62,676 bases of DNA from Candidatus Poribacteria bacterium (lineage in GTDB: Bacteria; Poribacteria; WGA-4E; GCA-2687025), in contig VGLH01000005.1 of assembly GCA_016866785.1 (NCBI GenBank), forward strand, positions 1 to 62,676, read 5' to 3'. A program made the translations under genes and the position numbers. The notes under the pieces were generated by a model. That model was not told the DNA's origin. It did not search any database and saw only the letters and a program-made list of their open reading frames with translations. Below are positions 50,103 to 60,859 of the stretch, in pieces. Position 1 is the stretch's first letter, and each line of letters begins with the position of its first letter.

Positions 50103-51023
50103 TCAGTTGGCGTCTTCGGTTCGGAAGCGAATCTCGTGGAAGAAGGGATGCGTGTCGGCATTCGTCACGCGGTTCAAGCCCGCGATGATCTGCGCCGTGG
50201 ACAATCGCTTGCCCTGCAGGTGCGGCTTGGTCCGCTGGAAGTCGCGGAACAGCTTGGCAAAGACATCCGCGCCGAAGCGCTTCTGGATCTCGGCGACGAT
50301 GGTGTAGGCGGCTCCATAGGTTTCGGCGCTGCGGAACGGAAGCGGGCTCGCATCTCCGCGCCAGTTCTGCAACACATTATAGCCTTGCTCGTCGAGTCCA
50401 ATGGGAACGAGCGAGTTCGCCGTGGAGTTGTGCCGGACGCCCTCTGCGTGATCGATCTGTACCATGGTCGCGATGCCTTCGTCGAGCCACGCGGGCAGGG
50501 CATAGACGCCCAGGAGGGCGTGCGTCAACTCGTGAGCGAGCGTCGACGGCGTCTCGAACGCCTCCTTCCCAAACGTCATCGTGACCTTCTCCGTGCCTTC
50601 GACGTGCTGTTCGCCGAGCATCTGCCATTGGATTCGCGTGTTGGCGTCGTGCGGGTTGCCCTCGATGTCGATCGCGATGACGACGTGGATCGGACCGGCA
50701 GCCTCGATTCCGAAGATATCGCGCACGAAGTCGTAGCTGTCGTTGAGGACGCCGCTCGCCGCCTTGCCTCTGGTGTGGCGCTCCGATGGCGTTCGGTAGC
50801 CGTCGATGGCGTCGAAGCCCTTGGCGAACTCGAATCGGAACCTCGGATTCAGGAACGTGTAGCCGTCGCCGTCGGCGCCGAGCTCCTCGCCGACGACTTG
50901 GTATGTCGTCGTGCGCATGGCGGCGCGCGAGCTCCGCACCGTGCGCGATAGCCCGGATCCGCCCGATGCGCACCCGGCGACCATCAGTGTTGCGGCAGAC
51001 AACGCGAACGCTCTAAGCCACAT
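50103..51023 (-). CDS. gluzincin-type zinc metallopeptidase lipoprotein
   Basis: A 306-residue lipoprotein (lipobox MVAGC, Cys18) with a peptidase MA-like domain. The zinc and catalytic motif is 'LAHELTHALLG' (HExxH), and the third ligand Glu lies 16 residues further in 'LPAWLDEGIATMVQ', the gluzincin arrangement. 'SAETYGAAYTIVAEIQKRFG' is the conserved helix after the active site. It should be an active periplasmic or surface peptidase of unknown target. ATG 51023 lies inside the last codons of the preceding membrane protein gene (11-base overlap), implying coupled translation. The TlpA-like lipoprotein gene follows after 28 bases. Confidence 0.87.
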   Translation of the reverse strand: MWLRAFALSAATLMVAGCASGGSGLSRTVRSSRAAMRTTTYQVVGEELGADGDGYTFLNPRFRFEFAKGFDAIDGYRTPSERHTRGKAASGVLNDSYDFVRDIFGIEAAGPIHVVIAIDIEGNPHDANTRIQWQMLGEQHVEGTEKVTMTFGKEAFETPSTLAHELTHALLGVYALPAWLDEGIATMVQIDHAEGVRHNSTANSLVPIGLDEQGYNVLQNWRGDASPLPFRSAETYGAAYTIVAEIQKRFGADVFAKLFRDFQRTKPHLQGKRLSTAQIIAGLNRVTNADTHPFFHEIRFRTEDAN

Positions 51024-53415
51024 GGGAGCGTCCCGTGAGGTGGTGCTGGGACTTCCAGCGGATCGCGTAGTGCAGCAGGTTCTCAGCGAGAGGCATGCTC
51101 CACGACAGATCCGCCGCCGACTCCGGTCCGACGCCGAGGACCACGTAAAGCCCGGACCCGTACGGCAGCGCCAGCGCAACGGCGGCGGGGTATTCCTCGT
51201 TCCGCACCTGCGATGTCACGGTCGCCAGCAGCGTGTACCGGTCGCTCCAGTCGTCCCACCAGACGAGCGGCTTGAGCGCTTTGGCGTCGATGGCGTGCGG
51301 ATGCCGAAAGATCGGCTCCCCGGCACGGGTGTCATTCAGGTCCTGTTTCACTGGGTTCTTGCCGAACACCAACGGGTCGGGAACCCAGGAGAGCTTGTTC
51401 CCACGGGCGGCGCGCGTGTTCGGAGCAAGGGCGATGACGATGCCGCCGTTGGCAGCGAACTTGCGGATGCGGTCTTCGTTGGCTCGTGTGAGCCCCGGAC
51501 CCCCGGTCACGCGTGCGCCATAGCCAACCCAAAGAATGTCGAGCTTCTCAAGGCGTTCCAGCCTCTGCTCGCGGAGTCGTCGGAAGAGAAGCCGATGCCC
51601 CAAGATGAACTTGCGTTCGCTCAGTGCGAGGTATTCCTCATCTCTGGGGCGAGTACTGACGACTCCGATGCGGATCGGCATCTGCCGTGGAACCGGGACG
51701 GCTCGCCACTCGCGGCGGTGGCGCACGATCGGGAAGAAGAGGACGCGCGACATCGGCGACACGGCGCGACGTTCCTCTCTGAGCCGCGCGATGAGAGCGA
51801 TCTGCGCCGCCGCCAACCTGCCCTTCATCGGCGGCAACCAACCACGGAACGTGCGTCGAATCGGACGCAGTCTGTCGTCCGTCGTGGCGAACTGGTCCTC
51901 CGTCTGCCACCGCTTCGAGTAGAACGACGTGATTTCCACCGTATCGACGCGCGCCTTGCTCAGGTTCGTGATGTAGCCGCGATAGAGGTGCAGCCCTCGG
52001 ACTCGCGTTCCCTCTTTGTCCTGGAAGTCGAACCGAGCGGCGCTGTGCCAGAGCGCTTCCGTCAGCGTGTCGATGGACACCAACTGCGGATCGAACTTCT
52101 CGGCGCGGTATTGGACGACGTTGTCGCTGTAACGGATGATCACATCCGCCGTGCGAACCGTCTCGAATTCCATTTCGACGGTGTTGTAGTACTCCGCGTG
52201 CATCGGGATGGAGTAGCGCACCTCATCGAGGAGCCCGCCCGCGACGTTGCGTTCCTCCCGCGTGCGGTCGGGATGGAACATGACGGGCCACTCGACGCGG
52301 GAGTACGGCTGGATCACCAGGTTGATGTCGCGCCGTTCCTGGTTCCCGACGACGACGCCGTGGATCTCCTTGCCGTCGCGGTAGGACACATGCCTGAGCG
52401 TCACGGGGTACGCGACTCGGCTCTCGATGGTGTACGTATCGCCCTGGCGCGTGAACCGGAACCCCTTGTCGCTCCCGACCCAGGTTCCCATGTCCTTGTG
52501 AACGTTGATCTTGGACATCTCGTGGAACTTGACGTCCAAGAGGTGGTAGAAGCCGTCCAGCGTGTAGTCGGCGAGGATGCACTCGTAGTCGACGCCGCCG
52601 ACCTTGGCGATGACGCGCGTTCCGATGAGCCGGTCGATCAGCAGCCGGTAGGAAGCTCCTGTTGCCATGCTCGCGCCGGCGAACTCCTCCGCTTGGGCTT
52701 CCGCAAGCTGCGTGATCTCAGCCCCGCCGACGAACCCGCCGAACCGTTTGCGTAGGCGCTGCCCAATGGCGCGGTCGTAGATCTGCTTAAGCGTCGTGTT
52801 GAACTGCCGACCCAGTGATTGGAGGCGACGCAGTATTTTTGCCAGAAACGTCGGGTGGTACAGCCGTTCCGCGTAGGCTTGCCGCTCGCCAGACTCCTTT
52901 GCCGTCATCTCGTCGTGGTAACGGAGCATGGCGTAGAGCTTCTGGAACTCCGTCTCCGGGAAGAGCCTGCCGGCGTCTTTCCCTTCCACGTCCGTCTTCT
53001 CCGACGCGATCTCGACATCCTTGAGGATCAGCCGGAGAATCCCCGTGTACCGGCTTCCCTCGTGCAGAAGGACGACATACTTGCCGCGCGTCCGGCGAAG
53101 GATGCGGTCCCGCTTGAGCGCGTTGACGATTGTCGTCAGCGCCGTGATGACGACCGTGATGGCGATGAAGATCCAGAGCGGATTGGTCGGCTTGCCCTCT
53201 TCCTCGACCTTCAGGACGTCGAGGAGCTTCCGGGGCGACGGTGGCGTGGTGGGCGTGTCGGGAGGGCTCTGCGCCAGCGTCGGCAGAACAACGAGAACGC
53301 ACAGAGCCACCACGCACAGGGCGGCGGTCGTCCACCAACGCCATCGGCGGGAGGAACGACTCCGGGTCGCGTGATCGGCTTCGGGCTCGCGGTTCATGGG
53401 ACGTCTACCAGGCAT
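51013..53415 (-). CDS. two-helix membrane protein with C-terminal amidotransferase-like (DUF4159-like) domain
   Basis: About 800 residues. Two N-terminal hydrophobic segments ('TAALCVVALCVLVVLPTLA' and 'PLWIFIAITVVITALTTIVN') bracket a short proline-rich linker, so the first may be a signal and the second an anchor. A small beta domain follows ('GKYVVLLHEGSRYTGILRLI'), then a long middle part without known motifs, and from about residue 640 a Rossmann-like domain ('LDILWVGYGARVTG', 'IRKFAANGGIVIALAPN', 'ALPYGSGLYVVLGVG') homologous to the C-terminal half of the crystallin protein at 57810. ATG 53415 overlaps the zinc-ribbon gene (11 bases) and has GGAGG upstream; ATG 53397 is an alternative. 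Confidence 0.7.
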   Translation of the reverse strand: MPGRRPMNREPEADHATRSRSSRRWRWWTTAALCVVALCVLVVLPTLAQSPPDTPTTPPSPRKLLDVLKVEEEGKPTNPLWIFIAITVVITALTTIVNALKRDRILRRTRGKYVVLLHEGSRYTGILRLILKDVEIASEKTDVEGKDAGRLFPETEFQKLYAMLRYHDEMTAKESGERQAYAERLYHPTFLAKILRRLQSLGRQFNTTLKQIYDRAIGQRLRKRFGGFVGGAEITQLAEAQAEEFAGASMATGASYRLLIDRLIGTRVIAKVGGVDYECILADYTLDGFYHLLDVKFHEMSKINVHKDMGTWVGSDKGFRFTRQGDTYTIESRVAYPVTLRHVSYRDGKEIHGVVVGNQERRDINLVIQPYSRVEWPVMFHPDRTREERNVAGGLLDEVRYSIPMHAEYYNTVEMEFETVRTADVIIRYSDNVVQYRAEKFDPQLVSIDTLTEALWHSAARFDFQDKEGTRVRGLHLYRGYITNLSKARVDTVEITSFYSKRWQTEDQFATTDDRLRPIRRTFRGWLPPMKGRLAAAQIALIARLREERRAVSPMSRVLFFPIVRHRREWRAVPVPRQMPIRIGVVSTRPRDEEYLALSERKFILGHRLLFRRLREQRLERLEKLDILWVGYGARVTGGPGLTRANEDRIRKFAANGGIVIALAPNTRAARGNKLSWVPDPLVFGKNPVKQDLNDTRAGEPIFRHPHAIDAKALKPLVWWDDWSDRYTLLATVTSQVRNEEYPAAVALALPYGSGLYVVLGVGPESAADLSWSMPLAENLLHYAIRWKSQHHLTGRSHVA

Positions 53416-54130
53416 CGTCGAACTCGCCTCCGCATTTGCGGCAGACGAGGTAGAACTGGATCTCGGGTCGCAAGGCATACTGCTTGAGGAGCTCCGCCGC
53501 CTTTGGGGGCAGATCGTCGCCGCACTTGGCGCACTTGTAGAGCGATCCCGACGGCGGCGGAACGCGCCTCATGTCGTCGAGCATCGACGCCCAATGCTCG
53601 TACTCCCATGGGATGGAGTGCCCCACCTCGCGGGAGATGGTCTCTGCCCACTTGATGAGCTGCTGGCACTCCGGCAGCGTCTTCTCCGCGAGAGGCGGCT
53701 GATACTGGTTCACCTCGTTCGTGAGCTGTGCATCGGTCATCCCGCTATCGACGAAGCAGTCTCGGATGCCCACCTTCCACAGGTCTAGCGAGAGAAACAT
53801 CGCCCGCAGCGAGCCGTCCGGGTTCTTTCGGGAGACCACAGCGACAGCGACGCCGCTCTGCGGCAGGTAGCTCGCGAAGCACTTGTGCAGCGGCAGATGC
53901 GGCGGTTGTCGTATCCCCGACGTGACGATCCTCGGCGCGAAGTACGGACATCGTGCATCGCAGCCCTGAACCTTGCCGCGACTCTCGCGACAAGTCATCG
54001 GGGCGATGATGCCGCCGTATGCGGGACACATGCGCTTGCCGTTCGGCAAGCCCGTGACCTTGTCGCGACTGCGGTAGGGCCGCCTTGTCCTAGGGCGTTG
54101 GTCGAGAGGGCGGGGCCATTTGTCGTACAT
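53405..54130 (-). CDS. cysteine-rich zinc-ribbon protein, unknown
   Basis: A 241-residue soluble protein with two metal-binding-type cysteine groups. The N-terminal one spans about residues 35-63 (CPAYGG, TCRES, GCDARCPYF), and the C-terminal one is a classic zinc ribbon ('YKCAKCGDD' and 'LVCRKCGGEF', about 199-237). Between them is a helical region ('DAQLTNEVNQYQPPLAEKTL'). The basic N-terminus is rich in Arg and Pro. No catalytic motif is evident; zinc ribbons usually mediate protein or nucleic-acid contacts. It lies 12 bases after the giant SPFH gene and its stop overlaps the next gene, so it is firmly part of the operon. Confidence 0.75.
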   Translation of the reverse strand: MYDKWPRPLDQRPRTRRPYRSRDKVTGLPNGKRMCPAYGGIIAPMTCRESRGKVQGCDARCPYFAPRIVTSGIRQPPHLPLHKCFASYLPQSGVAVAVVSRKNPDGSLRAMFLSLDLWKVGIRDCFVDSGMTDAQLTNEVNQYQPPLAEKTLPECQQLIKWAETISREVGHSIPWEYEHWASMLDDMRRVPPPSGSLYKCAKCGDDLPPKAAELLKQYALRPEIQFYLVCRKCGGEFDDAW

Positions 54131-54142
54131 CGATCCGGCGCG

Positions 54143-57100
54143 CTAGGTCTGGGGGTTCGACTTGCCTACGAGCGACGACAAGTACTGCGCGATCTTGTCG
54201 GTGACCGTCTGGGCGTCCACGTCGGCGAAGTTGAAGAGCTCCTTCAGCACTGGAGTAATAACGCCCGTATCGAGGATGGCGTTGGCGACTCGACCCATGT
54301 TGCTCCGGTCGGTCGGGCCCTGTCCGCCGGTTCCGCCCATGTCGAGAACCTTGATGCTCTGGATCCGTTCGACCGGCTTCATCAACTGCTCCGCCAAGCG
54401 CGGCGACTGGCTGATGAGCTCCATGACAGCCTCTTGGACGAGGACGCGCTGTTCAGCGGAGTTCCGAGCCTGCAAGTGCGCCATCTCTCCTTCTGCCTTG
54501 GCGCGAGCCTCGGCGAGGATGGCGTCGGCGATGCGCTCGATAGGCTGAGCCTGTCCTTCGGCGTTGATGACAGCCACTTCGCGCTGCCACTCGGCTTCGC
54601 GCGTCCGCTGAACCGCCGTAACGTTGACCTGGGCTTCCATCTTCTGCGCGGCGGCTTCCAATCGGTCGCGCTCTGCAAGTTCCGTCACACGCTGCTTGCC
54701 CTGAACCGCGATCTTCCGATCCTCGTCGGTCAGCGTGACGACGAGTTCCTGCCCGATTCGTGCCTGCTCGACGACCAACGTCCGTTGGATGTCCGCCTGC
54801 TGCACCTGCCGCGTCTGGTCGATCTGAGCCGTCTCCACGATCAGGTTCTTGTCGATCTCGCGCGTCTGGACGAGACGTTCCTGGTCGATGCGAGCCGTCT
54901 CGGTGGCGAGGGTTCGCTCGACATCGCGGACCTGAACGCCCTCTTGCTGGGCGATCTGAGCGATCTGGATTCCCAACTCCCGTTCGATGTCCCGTTCCTT
55001 GACCGCCTGCTCCTGGCTGATCCGAGCCGTCTCGACGCGTAACGTCCGCTCGATCTCGGCTTCCTGCACCTGTCGCGTCTGATCGATCTGCGCCGTTTCG
55101 ACGATCAGGTTCTTGTCGATCTCGCGCGTCTGGACGAGGCGCTCCTGGTCGATGCGAGCCGTCTCTGTCGCCAACGTGCGCTCGACATCGCGCACCTGAA
55201 CGCCCTCTTGCTGGGCGATCTGAGCGATCTGGATGCCCAACTCCCGTTCGATATCCCGTTCCTTGACCGCCTGCTCCTGGGAGATGCGCGCCGTCTCGAC
55301 GCGTAAGGTCCGCTCGATCTCGGCTTCCTGCACCTGCCGCGTCTGGTCGATCTGCGCCGTCTCGACGATCAGGTTCTTGTCGATCTCGCGCGTCTGGACG
55401 AGGCGTTCTTGGTCGATGCGAGCGGTCTCCGTCGCCAGCGTCCGCTCGACATCGCGCACCTGGACACCTTCCTGCTGGGCGATCTGAGCGATCTGGATGC
55501 CCAACTCACGCTCGATATCCCGTTCCTTGACCGCCTGCTCCTGGCTGATCCGAGCCGTCTCGACGCGTAAGGTCCGCTCGATCTCGGCTTCCTGCACCTG
55601 CCGGGTCTGGTCGATCTGAGCCGTCTCCACGATCAGGTTCTTGTCGATCTCGCGCGTCTGGACGAGACGTTCCTGGTCGATGCGAGCCGTCTCGGTGGCG
55701 AGGGTTCGCTCGACGTCTCGGACCTGGACGCCTTCCTGCTGGGCGATCTGAGCGATCTGGATTCCCAACTCACGCTCGATGTCCCGTTCCTTGACCGCCT
55801 GCTCCTGGGAGATGCGCGCCGTCTCGACGCGTAAGGTCCGCTCGATCTCGGCTTCCTGGACTTGCCGCGTCTGGTCGATCTGAGCCGTCTCGACGATCAG
55901 GTTCTTGTCGATCTCGCGCGTCTGGACGAGGCGTTCTTGGTCGATGCGAGTGGTCTCCGTCGCCAGCGTCCGCTCGACATCGCGCACCTGGACGCCCTCC
56001 TGCTGGGCGATCTGAGCGATCTGGATGCCCAACTCCCGTTCGATATCCCGTTCCTTGACCGTCTGCTCCTGCGAGATGCGCGCCGTCTCGACGCGTAAGG
56101 TCCGCTCGATCTCGGCTTCCTGGACTTGCCGCGTCTGGTCGATCTGCGCCGTCTCGACGATCAGGTTCTTGTCGATCTCGCGCGTCTGGACGAGCCGTTC
56201 CTGGTCGATGCGAGCCGTCTCGGTGGCTAGGGTTCGCTCGACATCGCGCACCTGGACGCCCTCCTGCTGGGCGATCTGAGCGATCTGGATGCCCAACTCG
56301 CGCTCGATGTCCCGTTCCTTGACCGCCTGCTCCTGGCTGATCCGAGCCGTCTCGACGCGTAAGGTCCGCTCGATCTCGGCTTCCTGCACCTGCCGGGTCT
56401 GGTCGATCTGCGCCGTCTCGACGATCAGGTTCTTGTCGATCTCGCGCGTCTGGACGAGCCGTTCCTGGTCGATGCGAGCCGTCTCGGTGGCTAGGGTTCG
56501 CTCGACATCGCGCACCTGGACAGCCTCTTGCTGGATGATGCGAGCGGTCTCGACGCCCAAATCGCGCTCGATCTCGCGTTCCTGAACGACCTGCTCCTGA
56601 CGCACGCGCGCCGTCTCGATCCGCAGCATCCGCTCGATCTCGGCTTCTTGGATACGCCGCGACTGATCGACCTGCGCGAGTTCGACGTTCAGGTTCTTCT
56701 CGATCTCGCGTTCCTGGACGACCTGCTCCTGGCGGATCCGTGCCGATTCGACGCCCAGCAGCTTCTCAATCTCCCGCTCCTGAACGCCCTGTTCTTGGGA
56801 AATCTTCGCTCGCTCGATCTGCAGCTTAGTGGCGAACTCCACTTCCTGAATCCGCTGATCCTGCTCGTATTGGAAGGTCAGCGTGTCCGCTTCGCGCTCG
56901 GCGGCGTACGTCGCGATGTTCTTCGACTGGTCGGCTTCCGCCCACGCCAGGTCTTGGTTCAGCTTGAGCTTCTGGGTCTTAGTATCGACCGTGATCTTCG
57001 TGATGGCGACGTCCGTGTCGAGCTTGATCTGCTCGGTCTTCCGGCGCATCTCCTGCGTGATCTCGGTGATCTTCCGAATACCTTTGGCGTCGAACTGGTT

Positions 57101-57769
57101 ATCGGCGTTCATCGTCGTCAGAGGGGACTGATCGACGCGGATCAGCGACACGGTCTCGAGCGTCAAGCCGTTCTCTTCGAGGTCTGCGCGAACCGACTGC
57201 TGCACCGATTCCGCGAACTCCGCGCGCTTCTGGAGCAGGTCCTGCAACTCCTTCTCCGCAGCGACGATACGGAGAGCGCCTTCGAGCTTGGATTCCAGAA
57301 GCTCGGTGAGCTCCTCGGCGGTCATCGTTCGTTCGCCGAGGCTCTGGGCAGCTCGGAGGACGCGATCCTGGACGGGCTCGACGCGGACGAAGAACGCCGC
57401 TTCGATGTCGGCTCGCAGGAAGTCGTTTGTGATGAGGGCGTCAGCGCCTTCACGAATGATGTCGAGGCGCACCGTGTCGAGGAAGATCTCGCGGACCTCG
57501 TGGATGATCGTATTGATCCACAATCCGCCGCTGATCGTAATCTTTGCCTGCCGGCCGCCGGTGCGGACCAGCGCCTGATCGGCTCGCGGCTTGCGATAAC
57601 GGTAGACGGCGGCGACGAAGCCGGTCACGGGCAGGAGTACGATGATCGCAGCGCGGAGCAGCCAGCTCAGCGTCTCATTGAGCAGTGCCTCGCTGGGGAT
57701 CTGCGCGCCGAGCAGGATGGACAGCGCGGCGGTGATCAATACCACGGCGATGGCGACTAGAAGCCGCAT
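54143..57769 (-). CDS. giant SPFH/flotillin-like membrane protein with nested 22/88-residue coiled-coil repeats
   Basis: A 1,208-residue protein. Two membrane segments (about 3-22 and 36-57) are followed by an SPFH/band 7 domain (about 65-260; 'QAKITISGGLWINTIIHEVR', 'LRADIEAAFFVRVEPVQDRV', 'ENGLTLETVSLIRVDQSPL'). From about residue 265 to 1000 the protein is a continuous charged helix. Residues about 418-946 are six copies of an 88-residue unit, each made of four 22-residue motifs of the form (E/T)REI-x3-L-x-VETA-x-I-x-Q-x3-VQ. The C-terminal region (about 1000-1208) resembles flotillins. Flotillins scaffold membrane microdomains; this one is over twice the usual length. ATG 57769 has GGAGA seven bases upstream. 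Confidence 0.88.
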   Translation of the reverse strand: MRLLVAIAVVLITAALSILLGAQIPSEALLNETLSWLLRAAIIVLLPVTGFVAAVYRYRKPRADQALVRTGGRQAKITISGGLWINTIIHEVREIFLDTVRLDIIREGADALITNDFLRADIEAAFFVRVEPVQDRVLRAAQSLGERTMTAEELTELLESKLEGALRIVAAEKELQDLLQKRAEFAESVQQSVRADLEENGLTLETVSLIRVDQSPLTTMNADNQFDAKGIRKITEITQEMRRKTEQIKLDTDVAITKITVDTKTQKLKLNQDLAWAEADQSKNIATYAAEREADTLTFQYEQDQRIQEVEFATKLQIERAKISQEQGVQEREIEKLLGVESARIRQEQVVQEREIEKNLNVELAQVDQSRRIQEAEIERMLRIETARVRQEQVVQEREIERDLGVETARIIQQEAVQVRDVERTLATETARIDQERLVQTREIDKNLIVETAQIDQTRQVQEAEIERTLRVETARISQEQAVKERDIERELGIQIAQIAQQEGVQVRDVERTLATETARIDQERLVQTREIDKNLIVETAQIDQTRQVQEAEIERTLRVETARISQEQTVKERDIERELGIQIAQIAQQEGVQVRDVERTLATETTRIDQERLVQTREIDKNLIVETAQIDQTRQVQEAEIERTLRVETARISQEQAVKERDIERELGIQIAQIAQQEGVQVRDVERTLATETARIDQERLVQTREIDKNLIVETAQIDQTRQVQEAEIERTLRVETARISQEQAVKERDIERELGIQIAQIAQQEGVQVRDVERTLATETARIDQERLVQTREIDKNLIVETAQIDQTRQVQEAEIERTLRVETARISQEQAVKERDIERELGIQIAQIAQQEGVQVRDVERTLATETARIDQERLVQTREIDKNLIVETAQIDQTRQVQEAEIERTLRVETARISQEQAVKERDIERELGIQIAQIAQQEGVQVRDVERTLATETARIDQERLVQTREIDKNLIVETAQIDQTRQVQQADIQRTLVVEQARIGQELVVTLTDEDRKIAVQGKQRVTELAERDRLEAAAQKMEAQVNVTAVQRTREAEWQREVAVINAEGQAQPIERIADAILAEARAKAEGEMAHLQARNSAEQRVLVQEAVMELISQSPRLAEQLMKPVERIQSIKVLDMGGTGGQGPTDRSNMGRVANAILDTGVITPVLKELFNFADVDAQTVTDKIAQYLSSLVGKSNPQT
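54931..56514 (-). repeat. six tandem 264-bp units (each four 66-bp subunits) within the SPFH gene
   Basis: The junction sequence beginning CCTG(A/G)AC recurs at 54931, 55195, 55459, 55723, 55987, 56251 and 56515, each exactly 264 bases apart. Units are nearly identical; most differences are silent (for example CTGAAC versus CTGGAC in the GVQ codons), and only two amino-acid changes are seen across the six units. Diverged 66-base subunits continue on both sides, roughly 54760-54930 and 56515-56840. Confidence 0.95.
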
Positions 57770-57809: not shown

Positions 57810-59198
57810 TTATCCTACCATGCGCTGTCGCCCGCGCAACGGCTGGCGCGGCGACGATGCCCAAGCCAAGCTCGCCAAGTAGCACAGTGCGTTCGCCATG
57901 AGAGGACGCGCCGCCTCGGCGGCACGCGCGTCCCGCGTGTCGATGGCGAAGAGCACGTAGAAGCCGTTCCCCCAGGGCAGCAATGCCGCGATGGGTTCCT
58001 GGTTGTCGTCGCGACGGGCGAGGATGACGTACGTGGGGTCCGTCGTGACCCAGTGGTCGTCGGTGACGATCGTGTCCAGGTTGACGCGGTGGGGCCACGT
58101 GAACAAGCCGGTCCGACGCCCCTCGCGGGTCATCCACACTTTCACGTCCGCCGAGTTGACGACCCGCGCCGGGTGACGTTCGACCGGCAGCCAGCCGCCT
58201 TTCCACTGCGCGTCCTGCTCGCCCTCCGGGATGAAGATGCGGTCGTCGGCGCTGGACGCCCACAGAATGCCCCCCGCCTTGACCCACTCCTTGATGGCGT
58301 ACTCGTCGGCGGGCGTCAGGAAATAGCCGAGGTCGTGTCCGGGCGCGTTCCAGGTGAACCAGATGATGTCGAACTCCGAAAGGCGCTGGGCGATCCTCGA
58401 GAACGGGTGCGCCTCCGGGCTTCCGTAGTTGTCGAGGTTGTGGTTGATCCGAACGTGCGTGTACGTGAAGGTGTTCGACTCGATCTTCGTCATCGCGCCC
58501 AGCATGCCGGGCTCGCGCGTCCGCGTGTCGCCCTCCACCACCAGCACGTTGAAGGTTCCGGTCGGCAGAATCCGCGCCGAACTGATCGTGTCTCCGAACC
58601 GTTGCGGGTGGTCGTGGAGGTTCGGGAACTCGAGGCTGAAGTCGCGCGGGCCCAATGCCACGGAGAGCTGAGCCCCCTCGTAGTCTGGGTTCTGGAAGAA
58701 GACGATGCGGCAGCCGGCGAAAGGGAAGTTGGGACCCCGCGAGACGCGCAGCGACGAGACGGAATCGTTCATGCCGATCTCGCCGAAGTAGCTGACGTCT
58801 CTCAGGATCGTTGCCATGCGCCCTCGGTAGTTGAGGTCTTGGTACACCTCGGCGATCAGCGGAACCCAACCGTACTGAGGAGCCGTGATCGTGGCGGATG
58901 GGCTGAAGTTGATGGATGCGATGATGTCGCCGAAGTTGTACGGGATCGCGTGGACGTCCGGGTAGTAGCCCGGCGGCAACACGAGCCTTCTGCCCTGGTA
59001 TTGGGCGTGCTCGTAGAACATGGCGCGCTGATTGGGCGAGGCGGAGGCTCCGGGCCCGTGGAACACCTTGAGCGACGAGACGACGTCGGTCATCCCGATG
59101 GTCGCCAGGCTTTCCACCGGCTGAATCACCGTCGCCTTGGTGCCCTGAAAGTACTTGTCGCGGAACAGCTCCACGATGAGCCGTGGGTTCTGCGCCAT
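57810..59198 (-). CDS. beta/gamma-crystallin protein fused to an amidotransferase-like domain
   Basis: A 462-residue protein. Residues 1-210 are two beta/gamma-crystallin domains, each of two Greek-key motifs ('IVELFRDKYFQGTKATVI', 'FYEHAQYQGRRLVLPPGYYP', 'AEVYQDLNYRGRMATILRDV', 'VFFQNPDYEGAQLSV'). The calcium-binding sequence NDSVSS at 144-149 matches the (N/D)(N/D)xx(S/T)S rule; the other three sites are degenerate. From about 215 there is a Rossmann-like domain ('FDIIWFTWNAPGHDLGYFL', 'WVKAGGILWASSADD', 'LLPWGNGFYVLFAID') shared with the protein at 51013. No signal peptide is evident. ATG 59198 has GGAGA about 12 bases upstream. It lies between another crystallin gene and the SPFH gene. 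Confidence 0.8.
   Translation of the reverse strand: MAQNPRLIVELFRDKYFQGTKATVIQPVESLATIGMTDVVSSLKVFHGPGASASPNQRAMFYEHAQYQGRRLVLPPGYYPDVHAIPYNFGDIIASINFSPSATITAPQYGWVPLIAEVYQDLNYRGRMATILRDVSYFGEIGMNDSVSSLRVSRGPNFPFAGCRIVFFQNPDYEGAQLSVALGPRDFSLEFPNLHDHPQRFGDTISSARILPTGTFNVLVVEGDTRTREPGMLGAMTKIESNTFTYTHVRINHNLDNYGSPEAHPFSRIAQRLSEFDIIWFTWNAPGHDLGYFLTPADEYAIKEWVKAGGILWASSADDRIFIPEGEQDAQWKGGWLPVERHPARVVNSADVKVWMTREGRRTGLFTWPHRVNLDTIVTDDHWVTTDPTYVILARRDDNQEPIAALLPWGNGFYVLFAIDTRDARAAEAARPLMANALCYLASLAWASSPRQPLRGRQRMVG
57812..57839 (-). promoter_or_regulatory. possible internal promoter before the SPFH gene
   Basis: Minus strand TTGCGC (57834-57839), 16-base spacer, TAGGAT (57812-57817), inside the last codons of the crystallin gene and 42 bases before the SPFH start. 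Weak. Confidence 0.3.
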
Positions 59199-59241
59199 GT
59201 CGGACCCATTCTCCGCCGTGTCCCGTCCGGTCGCGAAGCGC

Positions 59242-60639
59242 CTAGGAGCGCATCAGCCGCCGCATCATGAGGAGCCGCTGCGTCTGCGACATCGGCTGTT
59301 CCAGCCCGGCGGCACGCGGCGAGGGTCCGATGTGTGCGCCCTCCCCATGGCGCTTGTAGATGCGGAAGTAGTCGAACCGGGTCACCGTCGGAGGAATGCT
59401 GCCGGGGCAGAGCGCGTGCAGCCCGACCTGCACCGGATCGCCCATGGCGACGACCGAGGTTCCGCAGTTCTGCCAGTTCTGACCGTCGGCGCTGGCGAAT
59501 CCGGTGAACTGGTTCCCTCGACGCTCCAGGCGCAGGAACAGATGCCGCACCGTCACCAAGCCCTGCCCTCTCCCGACGAGGGAGAAGACGCGGTTGATGT
59601 GCTGCTCGAACCGAACATCTCCGGCGAATCCGTGCGGGCCCGAGGTCTTTTCGAGCCGCAGGAACCGACCCGGGTCCTTCCAGACGAGAATCCCGCCGTG
59701 TTCCTTGAGTTGCGGCGTCACGGGGATGCGCGTCTCCAGCGCGAAGTCGCCGTTCAGGTCCATCACGAGACGCGGGGCGTCCATGTTGCCGCCCTGACCC
59801 GGCGGGTTCCCATGCCACAGGTCTCTGCCGGGCTGCACCTGCATTTCGAGATAGCCCTGGTTCCGCGACCAGACGCCGCCTCCCGTGGGCGCGACCCATC
59901 GCCAGGTGGGCTTCATCGTTGCATCGCCGAACTCGTCGCTGAATACCATCACGCTGAACTCGCCGGACGACGCCCACCCCTCGATCTGGATCGACGAGAT
60001 GGAGCTCCCGAAGGTGGAAGCGTACTGCCCTCCGACCATCTGGATCATGGACAGGTCGGGAACTTCCTTCTTCTGGGTCGTGTTCGTCAAGGGAACCTCA
60101 AGGAAGGGCCCGTCGAAGTCGATGTGCTCGTAGAACCGCACTTTGGCGCCGCTCGACGGGAAGTCGGGTCCCTTCGTCACGCGCGCGCTCTGGATCGTGT
60201 CCGCCATTCCGAGCTGCGTGTGCGTGTTCGCGATGTCGCGGAGTACCACGGCTTTGCGCCCACGGAAGGCGGTCGCCTCGAAGACCTCAATGATGACCGG
60301 AACCGTGCCCCAGACGGGCCCGGCGAGGTCGTAGTCCGGCGCGAAGTTGATCGACGCCACCTGTCCGGTGTGGTTCGTCACGACGTCCAGCAGGTTGGGG
60401 TAGTAGCCGGGACCGAGGACGATCTTCCTGCCCTGAAAGTTCGGCAACTCGTGGAAGATCGCGCGGTAGTTGGGCCCCGCCCCGAAGCCGGGCCCGCGAA
60501 ACACCCGCGCGGAGCGGACGCTGTTGGGGAAGCCGACATCCGCGAGGATGCGCTGGGGGTGGACGAGGTAGCCTACGCGTCCGCCGTAGTTGGGCTGCTC
60601 AAAGACCTCGACGACCAGTCGGGGAGTCACGTTCGGCAT
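59242..60639 (-). CDS. beta/gamma-crystallin protein with C-terminal DUF1349-like domain
   Basis: A 465-residue protein. Residues about 1-215 form two beta/gamma-crystallin domains ('VVEVFEQPNYGGRVGYLV', 'IFHELPNFQGRKIVLGPGYY', 'IIEVFEATAFRGRKAVVLRD', 'RFYEHIDFDGPFLEVPL'). Its calcium motifs are degenerate (PNSVRS, ADTIQS, GSSISS). The C-terminal half is a lectin-like jelly roll of the DUF1349 type ('RDLWHGNPPGQGGNMDAPRL', 'HGGILVWKDPGRFLRLEKT', 'GFASADGQNWQNCGTS'), usually a carbohydrate-binding module. No signal peptide is visible from ATG 60639, and upstream in-frame starts do not give one. It heads the long minus-strand cluster and has a good promoter at 60719-60747. Confidence 0.8.
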   Translation of the reverse strand: MPNVTPRLVVEVFEQPNYGGRVGYLVHPQRILADVGFPNSVRSARVFRGPGFGAGPNYRAIFHELPNFQGRKIVLGPGYYPNLLDVVTNHTGQVASINFAPDYDLAGPVWGTVPVIIEVFEATAFRGRKAVVLRDIANTHTQLGMADTIQSARVTKGPDFPSSGAKVRFYEHIDFDGPFLEVPLTNTTQKKEVPDLSMIQMVGGQYASTFGSSISSIQIEGWASSGEFSVMVFSDEFGDATMKPTWRWVAPTGGGVWSRNQGYLEMQVQPGRDLWHGNPPGQGGNMDAPRLVMDLNGDFALETRIPVTPQLKEHGGILVWKDPGRFLRLEKTSGPHGFAGDVRFEQHINRVFSLVGRGQGLVTVRHLFLRLERRGNQFTGFASADGQNWQNCGTSVVAMGDPVQVGLHALCPGSIPPTVTRFDYFRIYKRHGEGAHIGPSPRAAGLEQPMSQTQRLLMMRRLMRS

Positions 60640-60718
60640 GGCAGTGGACACCTTCGGTAAACGCACAGGAATCGCACGGGCCCGCGTTCCGTGAGCCGGC
60701 ATCGGAAGGCTGGTGCAG

Positions 60719-60747
60719 ACTCTAACACCCGGCTCCAGTGATGTCAA
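60719..60747 (-). promoter_or_regulatory. promoter of the crystallin/SPFH cluster
   Basis: Minus strand TTGACA (60742-60747), 17-base spacer, TAGAGT (60719-60724), about 80 bases before the first start codon of the cluster. Confidence 0.55.
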
Positions 60748-60780
60748 CGGGTCGGGCGCTGGATACGCCCACGCCATCGG

Positions 60781-60810
60781 TTGTTCCGCGGACACGACGA
60801 TTGCTAGAAT
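60781..60810 (+). promoter_or_regulatory. promoter of the Gfo/Idh/MocA gene
   Basis: TTGTTC (60781-60786), 18-base spacer, TAGAAT (60805-60810), about 50 bases before the start codon at 60860. Confidence 0.4.
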
Positions 60811-60859
60811 GGCGTTCGCCGCCGCCATTCACGGACATTCCGCGAAGAGGGAGCTCGCC

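What the first reader, a model, noticed from the sequence alone, without database searches (positions are those of the whole stretch)
54143..57769. Giant flotillin-like protein built on a nested 22- and 88-residue repeat
The SPFH protein carries six almost identical 88-residue units, each made of four 22-residue motifs, flanked by more diverged 22-mers; the whole helix spans roughly 700 residues. Twenty-two is two hendecads, which predicts a long right-handed or nearly straight coiled coil rather than a normal heptad coil. Ordinary flotillins are about half this length. If fully helical, the repeat section alone would be around 80 nm or more (inferred from 0.15 nm per residue), enough to cross an envelope or form a filament. 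I know of no described flotillin with such a repeat.
Basis: partly seen in the sequence, partly recalled or inferred. Interest (0 to 1): 0.75.

Follow-up and report, generated by a model that had tools for sequence, protein, structure and literature searches.

The report
Giant flotillin lengthened in 88-residue steps
An uncultured bacterium of the phylum Poribacteria makes a membrane-scaffold protein of the flotillin family with a helical section about four times longer than the human one; across the whole phylum this section grows and shrinks almost only in steps of exactly 88 amino acids, as if a protein cage were built taller one storey at a time.

Summary
The minus-strand gene 54143-57769 encodes 1208 residues: two membrane helices, an SPFH domain, 32 back-to-back 22-mers without one indel (residues 307-1010, six near-identical 88-mers inside) and a C-terminal Flot domain. 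The copies differ at 10-26 of 264 bases but at only 0-2 amino acids, so each is under purifying selection, and the longest exact repeat (125 bp) makes an assembly artefact unlikely. New here: the gene is the giant end of a phylum-wide orthologue. In 35 full-length poribacterial orthologues the rod length is 288+88n residues (n = 0,1,2,3,5,6,7), with one exception (11 residues short), although a tree needs at least 12 length changes; in a second, shorter paralogue 30 of 30 rods differ only by multiples of 11. The hydrophobic pattern is a hendecad with seams on more than one side of the helix, as a cage wall needs; the best solved matches are the flotillin cages. Most likely it is a cytoplasmic flotillin cage whose wall is extended in whole modules. 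Giant p-flotillins with expanded coiled coils were reported in 2009, so this is a new variant of a known kind. The neighbour is a conserved beta/gamma-crystallin gene, not NfeD. Cage assembly and function are inferred.

The parts
54143..57769 (-). Giant flotillin gene, 1208 aa
   Evidence: ORF and Pfam hits; only copy in the genome
57707..57763 (-). First predicted membrane helix (aa 3-21)
   Evidence: hydropathy mean 2.85 over 19 residues; helix 2-22 in model
57605..57661 (-). Second predicted membrane helix (aa 37-55), followed by K/R-rich stretch
   Evidence: hydropathy 2.31; 5 K/R in next 15 residues
57047..57577 (-). SPFH / Band 7 domain (aa 65-241)
   Evidence: Pfam PF01145, E 2.4e-16
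54740..56851 (-). Array of 32 x 22-residue motifs without indel (aa 307-1010)
   Evidence: hendecad periodicity
56522..56785 (-). Diverged 88-residue unit (aa 329-416)
54938..56521 (-). Six near-identical 88-residue (264-bp) units (aa 417-944)
54806..54937 (-). Half unit (aa 945-988)
54230..54562 (-). C-terminal Flot domain (aa 1070-1180)
   Evidence: PF15975, E 6.5e-16
57810..59198 (-). Conserved upstream neighbour: beta/gamma-crystallin protein (462 aa), 40 bp from the flotillin start
   Evidence: PF00030 3.9e-15; 50-71% identical homologue directly upstream in nearly all long-orthologue loci whose upstream flank was fetched
53405..54130 (-). Downstream neighbour: 241-aa Cys-rich protein, 12 bp after the flotillin stop
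   Evidence: homologue downstream of the flotillin in most loci of other families, but not in the same-family loci L032/L033, where another gene follows

Best explanation
The gene encodes a prokaryotic flotillin (p-flotillin/SPFH2 type) anchored in the inner membrane by two N-terminal helices. Many copies stand side by side in a ring on the cytoplasmic face, and their long hendecad helices pack in parallel as the wall of a tall cage or tube that is closed by the C-terminal Flot domain. The wall is modular: each 88-residue module is eight hendecads (24 helical turns, 13.2 nm contour), made of four distinct 22-mers A-B-C-D. Recombination between 264-bp repeats adds or removes whole modules, and selection keeps the 11-residue register so that neighbouring helices still fit. 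The number of modules thus sets cage height. Shown here: domain make-up, repeat, register, quantised lengths, purifying selection, multi-faced hendecad helix. Inferred: cytoplasmic side, parallel cage assembly, height control. Speculative: what the cage encloses or tethers.
For: Domains. Anchor-to-anchor rod length in 35 orthologues is 288+88n, one exception of -11 (34 of 35 identical mod 88), with at least 12 length changes on the tree. Second paralogue: 30 of 30 rods equal mod 11 (269, 291, 324, 346). A-B-C-D order of the 22-mers is recovered when each family is left out of training: f8 215/220, f7 22/22, f6 10/11, f1 65/93, chance 25%. Hydrophobic harmonics on the 3/11 helical wheel: one-stripe term weak (2.2), two- and three-stripe terms strong (7.1, 8.1); V at 0 degrees, I/L at 131-164, A/G at 262-295. 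Closest solved relatives by profile and by fold: flotillin-1/2 cages 9bq2 and 9l3g. Human flotillin walls are single-layer right-handed barrels of 44 side-by-side helices, 186 residues long, without heptads, and can attach to a second membrane at the narrow end (PMC11260169). The shortest poribacterial array, 8 x 22 = 176 residues, is close to that wall length.
Against: No oligomer could be modelled. The AlphaFold2 models are low confidence (mean pLDDT 62 and 52), and the window model shows breaks near 407-425, 589-605 and 775-792 in sequence that is helical in other near-identical copies (most likely spurious, but hinges are not excluded). Steps of 88 are also what homologous recombination in a 264-bp repeat array gives without selection on height. 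Topology is from charge and hydropathy only.
Confidence: 0.6

Rival explanations
1. Long tether or filament: a few helices form a right-handed hendecad coiled-coil rod that reaches into the cytoplasm and holds the membrane at a fixed distance from the nucleoid, a microcompartment or another membrane.
For: Rod contour of ~105 nm; hendecads are the repeat of known straight or right-handed rods (own knowledge); human flotillin cages sometimes attach to a second membrane.
Against: Hydrophobic positions lie on more than one side of the helix with a weak one-stripe term, unlike a dimer to tetramer rod; all nearest solved relatives form rings or cages.
Confidence: 0.22
2. Neutral expansion: the extra 88-mers are a by-product of slippage or unequal recombination in a repeat and change nothing of importance.
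For: Length varies between close relatives (288, 376 and 464 within genus g20); units are homogenised within each genome.
Against: Units keep protein sequence at dS up to 0.58 with dN below 0.02; the 11-residue register is kept in 65 of 65 rods of two paralogues.
Confidence: 0.13
3. Assembly artefact in copy number.
For: Most genomes are metagenome assemblies; L041 holds a 620-bp exact repeat, so its count of modules is unsure.
Against: Window copies share no exact stretch above 125 bp, L042 none above 53 bp; single-contig genomes (G046, G080, G082-G084) and others of few contigs fit the same 88-step lengths.
Confidence: 0.03

Closest known systems
Giant p-flotillins of subgroup SPFH2b (Hinderhofer et al. 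2009, PMC2636767)
   Same: SPFH domain, flotillin type, strongly expanded coiled coil, reported 800-1000 aa
   Different: Up to 1208-1289 aa; an exact 22/88 repeat, lengths in steps of 88 and absence of an NfeD neighbour are not mentioned there in the passages read
Human flotillin-1/2 cage (PDB 9bq2, 9l3g; PMC11260169)
   Same: Best match by profile and by fold; SPFH ring, long helical wall without heptads, C-terminal cap
   Different: Wall 186 residues against about 800 helical residues here; no tandem repeat reported; two subunit types; no N-terminal membrane hairpin
E. coli YqiK and alphaproteobacterial flotillins, including Yoonia sp. WP_342075174.1 (1129 aa) and Shinella (about 890 aa)
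   Same: Same domain order; Yoonia and Shinella rods are also hendecad arrays with a super-period of 44/88 (z 5-10)
   Different: Repeats are much diverged (lag-88 identity 0.28-0.36), lengths are not multiples of 11 apart, and other neighbours (YqiJ/OB-fold and PspA, or SRPBCC genes)
Major vault protein
   Same: SPFH-like domain and long helices in a large barrel; weaker fold match
   Different: Not membrane anchored and no repeat rod of this kind (own knowledge)

Membership tests
Prokaryotic flotillin (SPFH2), giant subgroup | SPFH/Band 7 domain | tested here: met
   PF01145 E 2.4e-16, above cut-off
Prokaryotic flotillin (SPFH2), giant subgroup | C-terminal flotillin domain PF15975 | tested here: met
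   E 6.5e-16, above cut-off
Prokaryotic flotillin (SPFH2), giant subgroup | N-terminal hydrophobic membrane stretch | tested here: met
   two stretches, residues 3-21 and 37-55
Prokaryotic flotillin (SPFH2), giant subgroup | Expanded coiled-coil region | tested here: met
   704-residue hendecad array
Prokaryotic flotillin (SPFH2), giant subgroup | NfeD-type partner gene next door (usual, not obligatory, per PMC2636767) | tested here: not met
   neighbours are beta/gamma-crystallin and a Cys-rich protein; the genome's NfeD lies on another contig, C9
FloT (NCBIfam NF058507) | Score above the curated equivalog cut-off of 700 bits | tested here: not met
   24.5 bits
SPFH cage | Ring or cage of many subunits on a membrane | not testable with these tools
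   no oligomer prediction or imaging available
Hendecad coiled coil | 11-residue periodicity of hydrophobic positions and register kept in length variants | tested here: met
   peaks at 5.5 and 2.75; rods equal mod 11 within each paralogue
Low-order (2-4 helix) coiled coil | One hydrophobic stripe along the helix | tested here: not met
   one-stripe harmonic 2.2 against 7.1 and 8.1 for two and three stripes

The most novel reading that the evidence does not exclude
Poribacteria build flotillin tubes roughly 60-105 nm tall, as large as or larger than vaults, whose height is set digitally by the number of 88-residue storeys, because 88 residues is a structural repeat of the wall and not only a recombination unit.
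Probability: 0.35. Interest if true: 0.75.

Novelty: new variant of a known kind. Interest (0 to 1): 0.52.

Why it matters
SPFH cages are found in all kingdoms, and it has been proposed that helix length sets cage size (PMC11260169), but I know of no natural series that differs only in wall length. These orthologues form such a series: same ends, same neighbour gene, walls of 2, 3, 4, 5, 7, 8 and 9 modules. That makes the rule 'wall length sets cage height' testable with natural proteins, and gives a ready-made modular hendecad wall for protein design. It also offers a candidate for unseen large cytoplasmic structures in an uncultured phylum long suspected of cell compartments.

Tried and rejected
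Single-sequence search of the PDB: no hit; only the alignment profile reached flotillin. Small Pfam and NCBIfam hits inside the repeat (dynein lid, RPA_C, BcepMu gp16, CsgB and others) were rejected: the stretches are short or do not pass on their own, and composition explains them. Long ORFs on the opposite strand of the array are shadow frames of the repeat. Testing quantised length outside Poribacteria: anchor distances in proteobacteria are not clean multiples of 11, so the rule is claimed for Poribacteria only. The window AlphaFold model's breaks were not read as hinges: they fall in sequence that is helical in other near-identical copies, and spurious bends of coiled coils are a known fault (PMC11676326 abstract). 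Literature: no paper held joins Poribacteria and flotillin, or hendecad and flotillin. The Poribacteria compartment paper (PMC5087111) gives polar granules of ~168 nm and BMC genes; nothing in the passages read ties them to this protein.

Full report
What is there. The minus-strand gene 54143-57769 encodes 1208 residues. Pfam places an SPFH/Band 7 domain at 65-241 and a flotillin C-terminal domain (PF15975) at 1070-1180. It is the only Flot-domain protein found in its genome. The genome belongs to Candidatus Poribacteria, judged from the named records of its relatives. Two hydrophobic stretches (3-21, 37-55) precede the SPFH domain; the loop between them holds no K or R and five K/R follow the second, so the rest is probably cytoplasmic (inference by the positive-inside rule).

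The repeat. Residues 307-1010 are 32 back-to-back 22-mers with no indel; 417-944 are six 88-mers that differ by 0-2 amino acids. At DNA level the same units differ at 10-26 of 264 bases, with 32 of 37 variable columns at third codon positions and dN far below dS. So the copies are not fresh duplicates, and each is held by purifying selection. No exact repeat exceeds 125 bp, which makes miscounting in assembly unlikely.

Hendecads, not heptads. Hydrophobic residues in the rod peak at periods 5.5 and 2.75, both fractions of 11. On a helical wheel of 3 turns per 11 residues they lie at 0 degrees (V), 131-164 (I, L) and 262-295 (A, G); the one-stripe harmonic is weak, the two- and three-stripe ones strong. 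A helix in a single-layer wall touches a neighbour on either side, which fits; a dimer or trimer rod should show one stripe.

The series across the phylum. 76 of 85 searched genomes of the phylum carry a Flot-domain protein. There are two paralogues: a long one, orthologous to the window's gene, and one of about 620 residues. For 35 full-length long orthologues I measured the distance between two fixed landmarks on either side of the rod. It is 288 (6 genomes), 376 (20), 464 (4), 552, 728, 816 (window) or 904: always 288+88n. The one exception, 365, is 11 less than 376. The family tree built from the parts outside the rod needs at least 12 length changes. In the second paralogue 30 of 30 rods are equal modulo 11 (269, 291, 324, 346). 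A length change that is not a whole number of hendecads was not seen in 65 rods.

The module. The four 22-mers of a unit are distinct types A-B-C-D. When each family was classified with matrices trained on the other families, order was recovered in 215/220 (f8), 22/22 (f7), 10/11 (f6) and 65/93 (f1, the window's family) 22-mers, against 25% by chance. So the A-B-C-D module is older than the families, and events add or drop whole modules. Within f1 the units are homogenised separately in each genome, a sign of continuing turnover. The three giants with complete genes (1116, 1208, 1289 aa) are one clade, family f1. The count in L041 is unsure, because it holds a 620-bp exact repeat.

Structure. 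AlphaFold2 of the 678-aa orthologue gives an SPFH fold and one nearly unbroken helix from 226 to 602 (mean pLDDT 62). The window protein is mostly helix with a few breaks (mean pLDDT 52). Neither is good enough to decide details, but nothing suggests separate globular units. By profile and by fold the nearest solved structures are the human flotillin cages 9bq2 and 9l3g, then by fold HflK/C, prohibitin, stomatin and, more weakly, the vault. In the flotillin cage 44 helices of 186 residues stand side by side as a right-handed barrel without heptads, and cage height is 22 nm (PMC11260169).

How it most likely works. I infer a membrane-based cytoplasmic cage whose wall is the hendecad rod. The shortest members have an array of 176 residues, close to the human wall; each further module adds up to 13.2 nm. 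The window's array has a contour of 105.6 nm; because the 186-residue helix of the human cage (27.9 nm contour) fits in a cage 22 nm high, helices there must be tilted, and the real height here could be nearer 60-105 nm. The 88-step may come from the 264-bp recombination unit, from a structural period of the wall, or from both; the data do not separate these. The 11-step is better explained by selection on packing.

Neighbours. Directly upstream lies a beta/gamma-crystallin protein with a homologue in the same place in nearly all loci of the long orthologue whose upstream flank was fetched, and downstream a Cys-rich protein kept in most loci outside the window's family. No NfeD gene is next to it; the genome's NfeD lies elsewhere. 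This linkage may be a better lead to function than the rod itself.

What is known. Giant p-flotillins of 800-1000 residues with expanded coiled coils were described in 2009 (PMC2636767). Hendecad rods with a diverged 44/88 super-period also occur in Yoonia and Shinella flotillins, so long hendecad flotillins are not limited to this phylum. I found no description of exact 22/88 repeats or of quantised length. I file it as a new variant of a known kind.

Noticed in passing
57810-60828 (-): Two beta/gamma-crystallin proteins stand upstream of the flotillin: one with no Pfam hit in its C-terminal half, one with a DUF1349 domain. The first is next to the long flotillin in nearly all poribacterial loci with upstream flank.
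   Followed up: partly
L035:8403-14043 and L036:7262-12675: In families f6/f7 the flotillin and its downstream Cys-rich gene are followed by genes that look like a NADH dehydrogenase (nuo) operon, judged by eye from their N-termini.
   Followed up: no
L081:3067-6456 (Yoonia sp. plasmid): A 1129-aa alphaproteobacterial flotillin with a hendecad rod and 44/88 super-period lies next to SRPBCC and molybdopterin/FAD oxidoreductase genes; Variovorax (L088) has SRPBCC neighbours too.
   Followed up: partly
L090:673-1374 and L091:673-1374: In Martelella and Hoeflea plasmids a gene annotated as bacteriorhodopsin lies directly upstream of a flotillin gene.
   Followed up: no
51013-53478 (-): 821-aa protein with N-terminal hydrophobic segments and no Pfam match; no homologue in the flanks of the other flotillin loci.
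   Followed up: no
L002-L031 (short paralogue): The second, about 620-aa poribacterial flotillin also keeps its rod length modulo 11 (30 of 30).
   Followed up: yes
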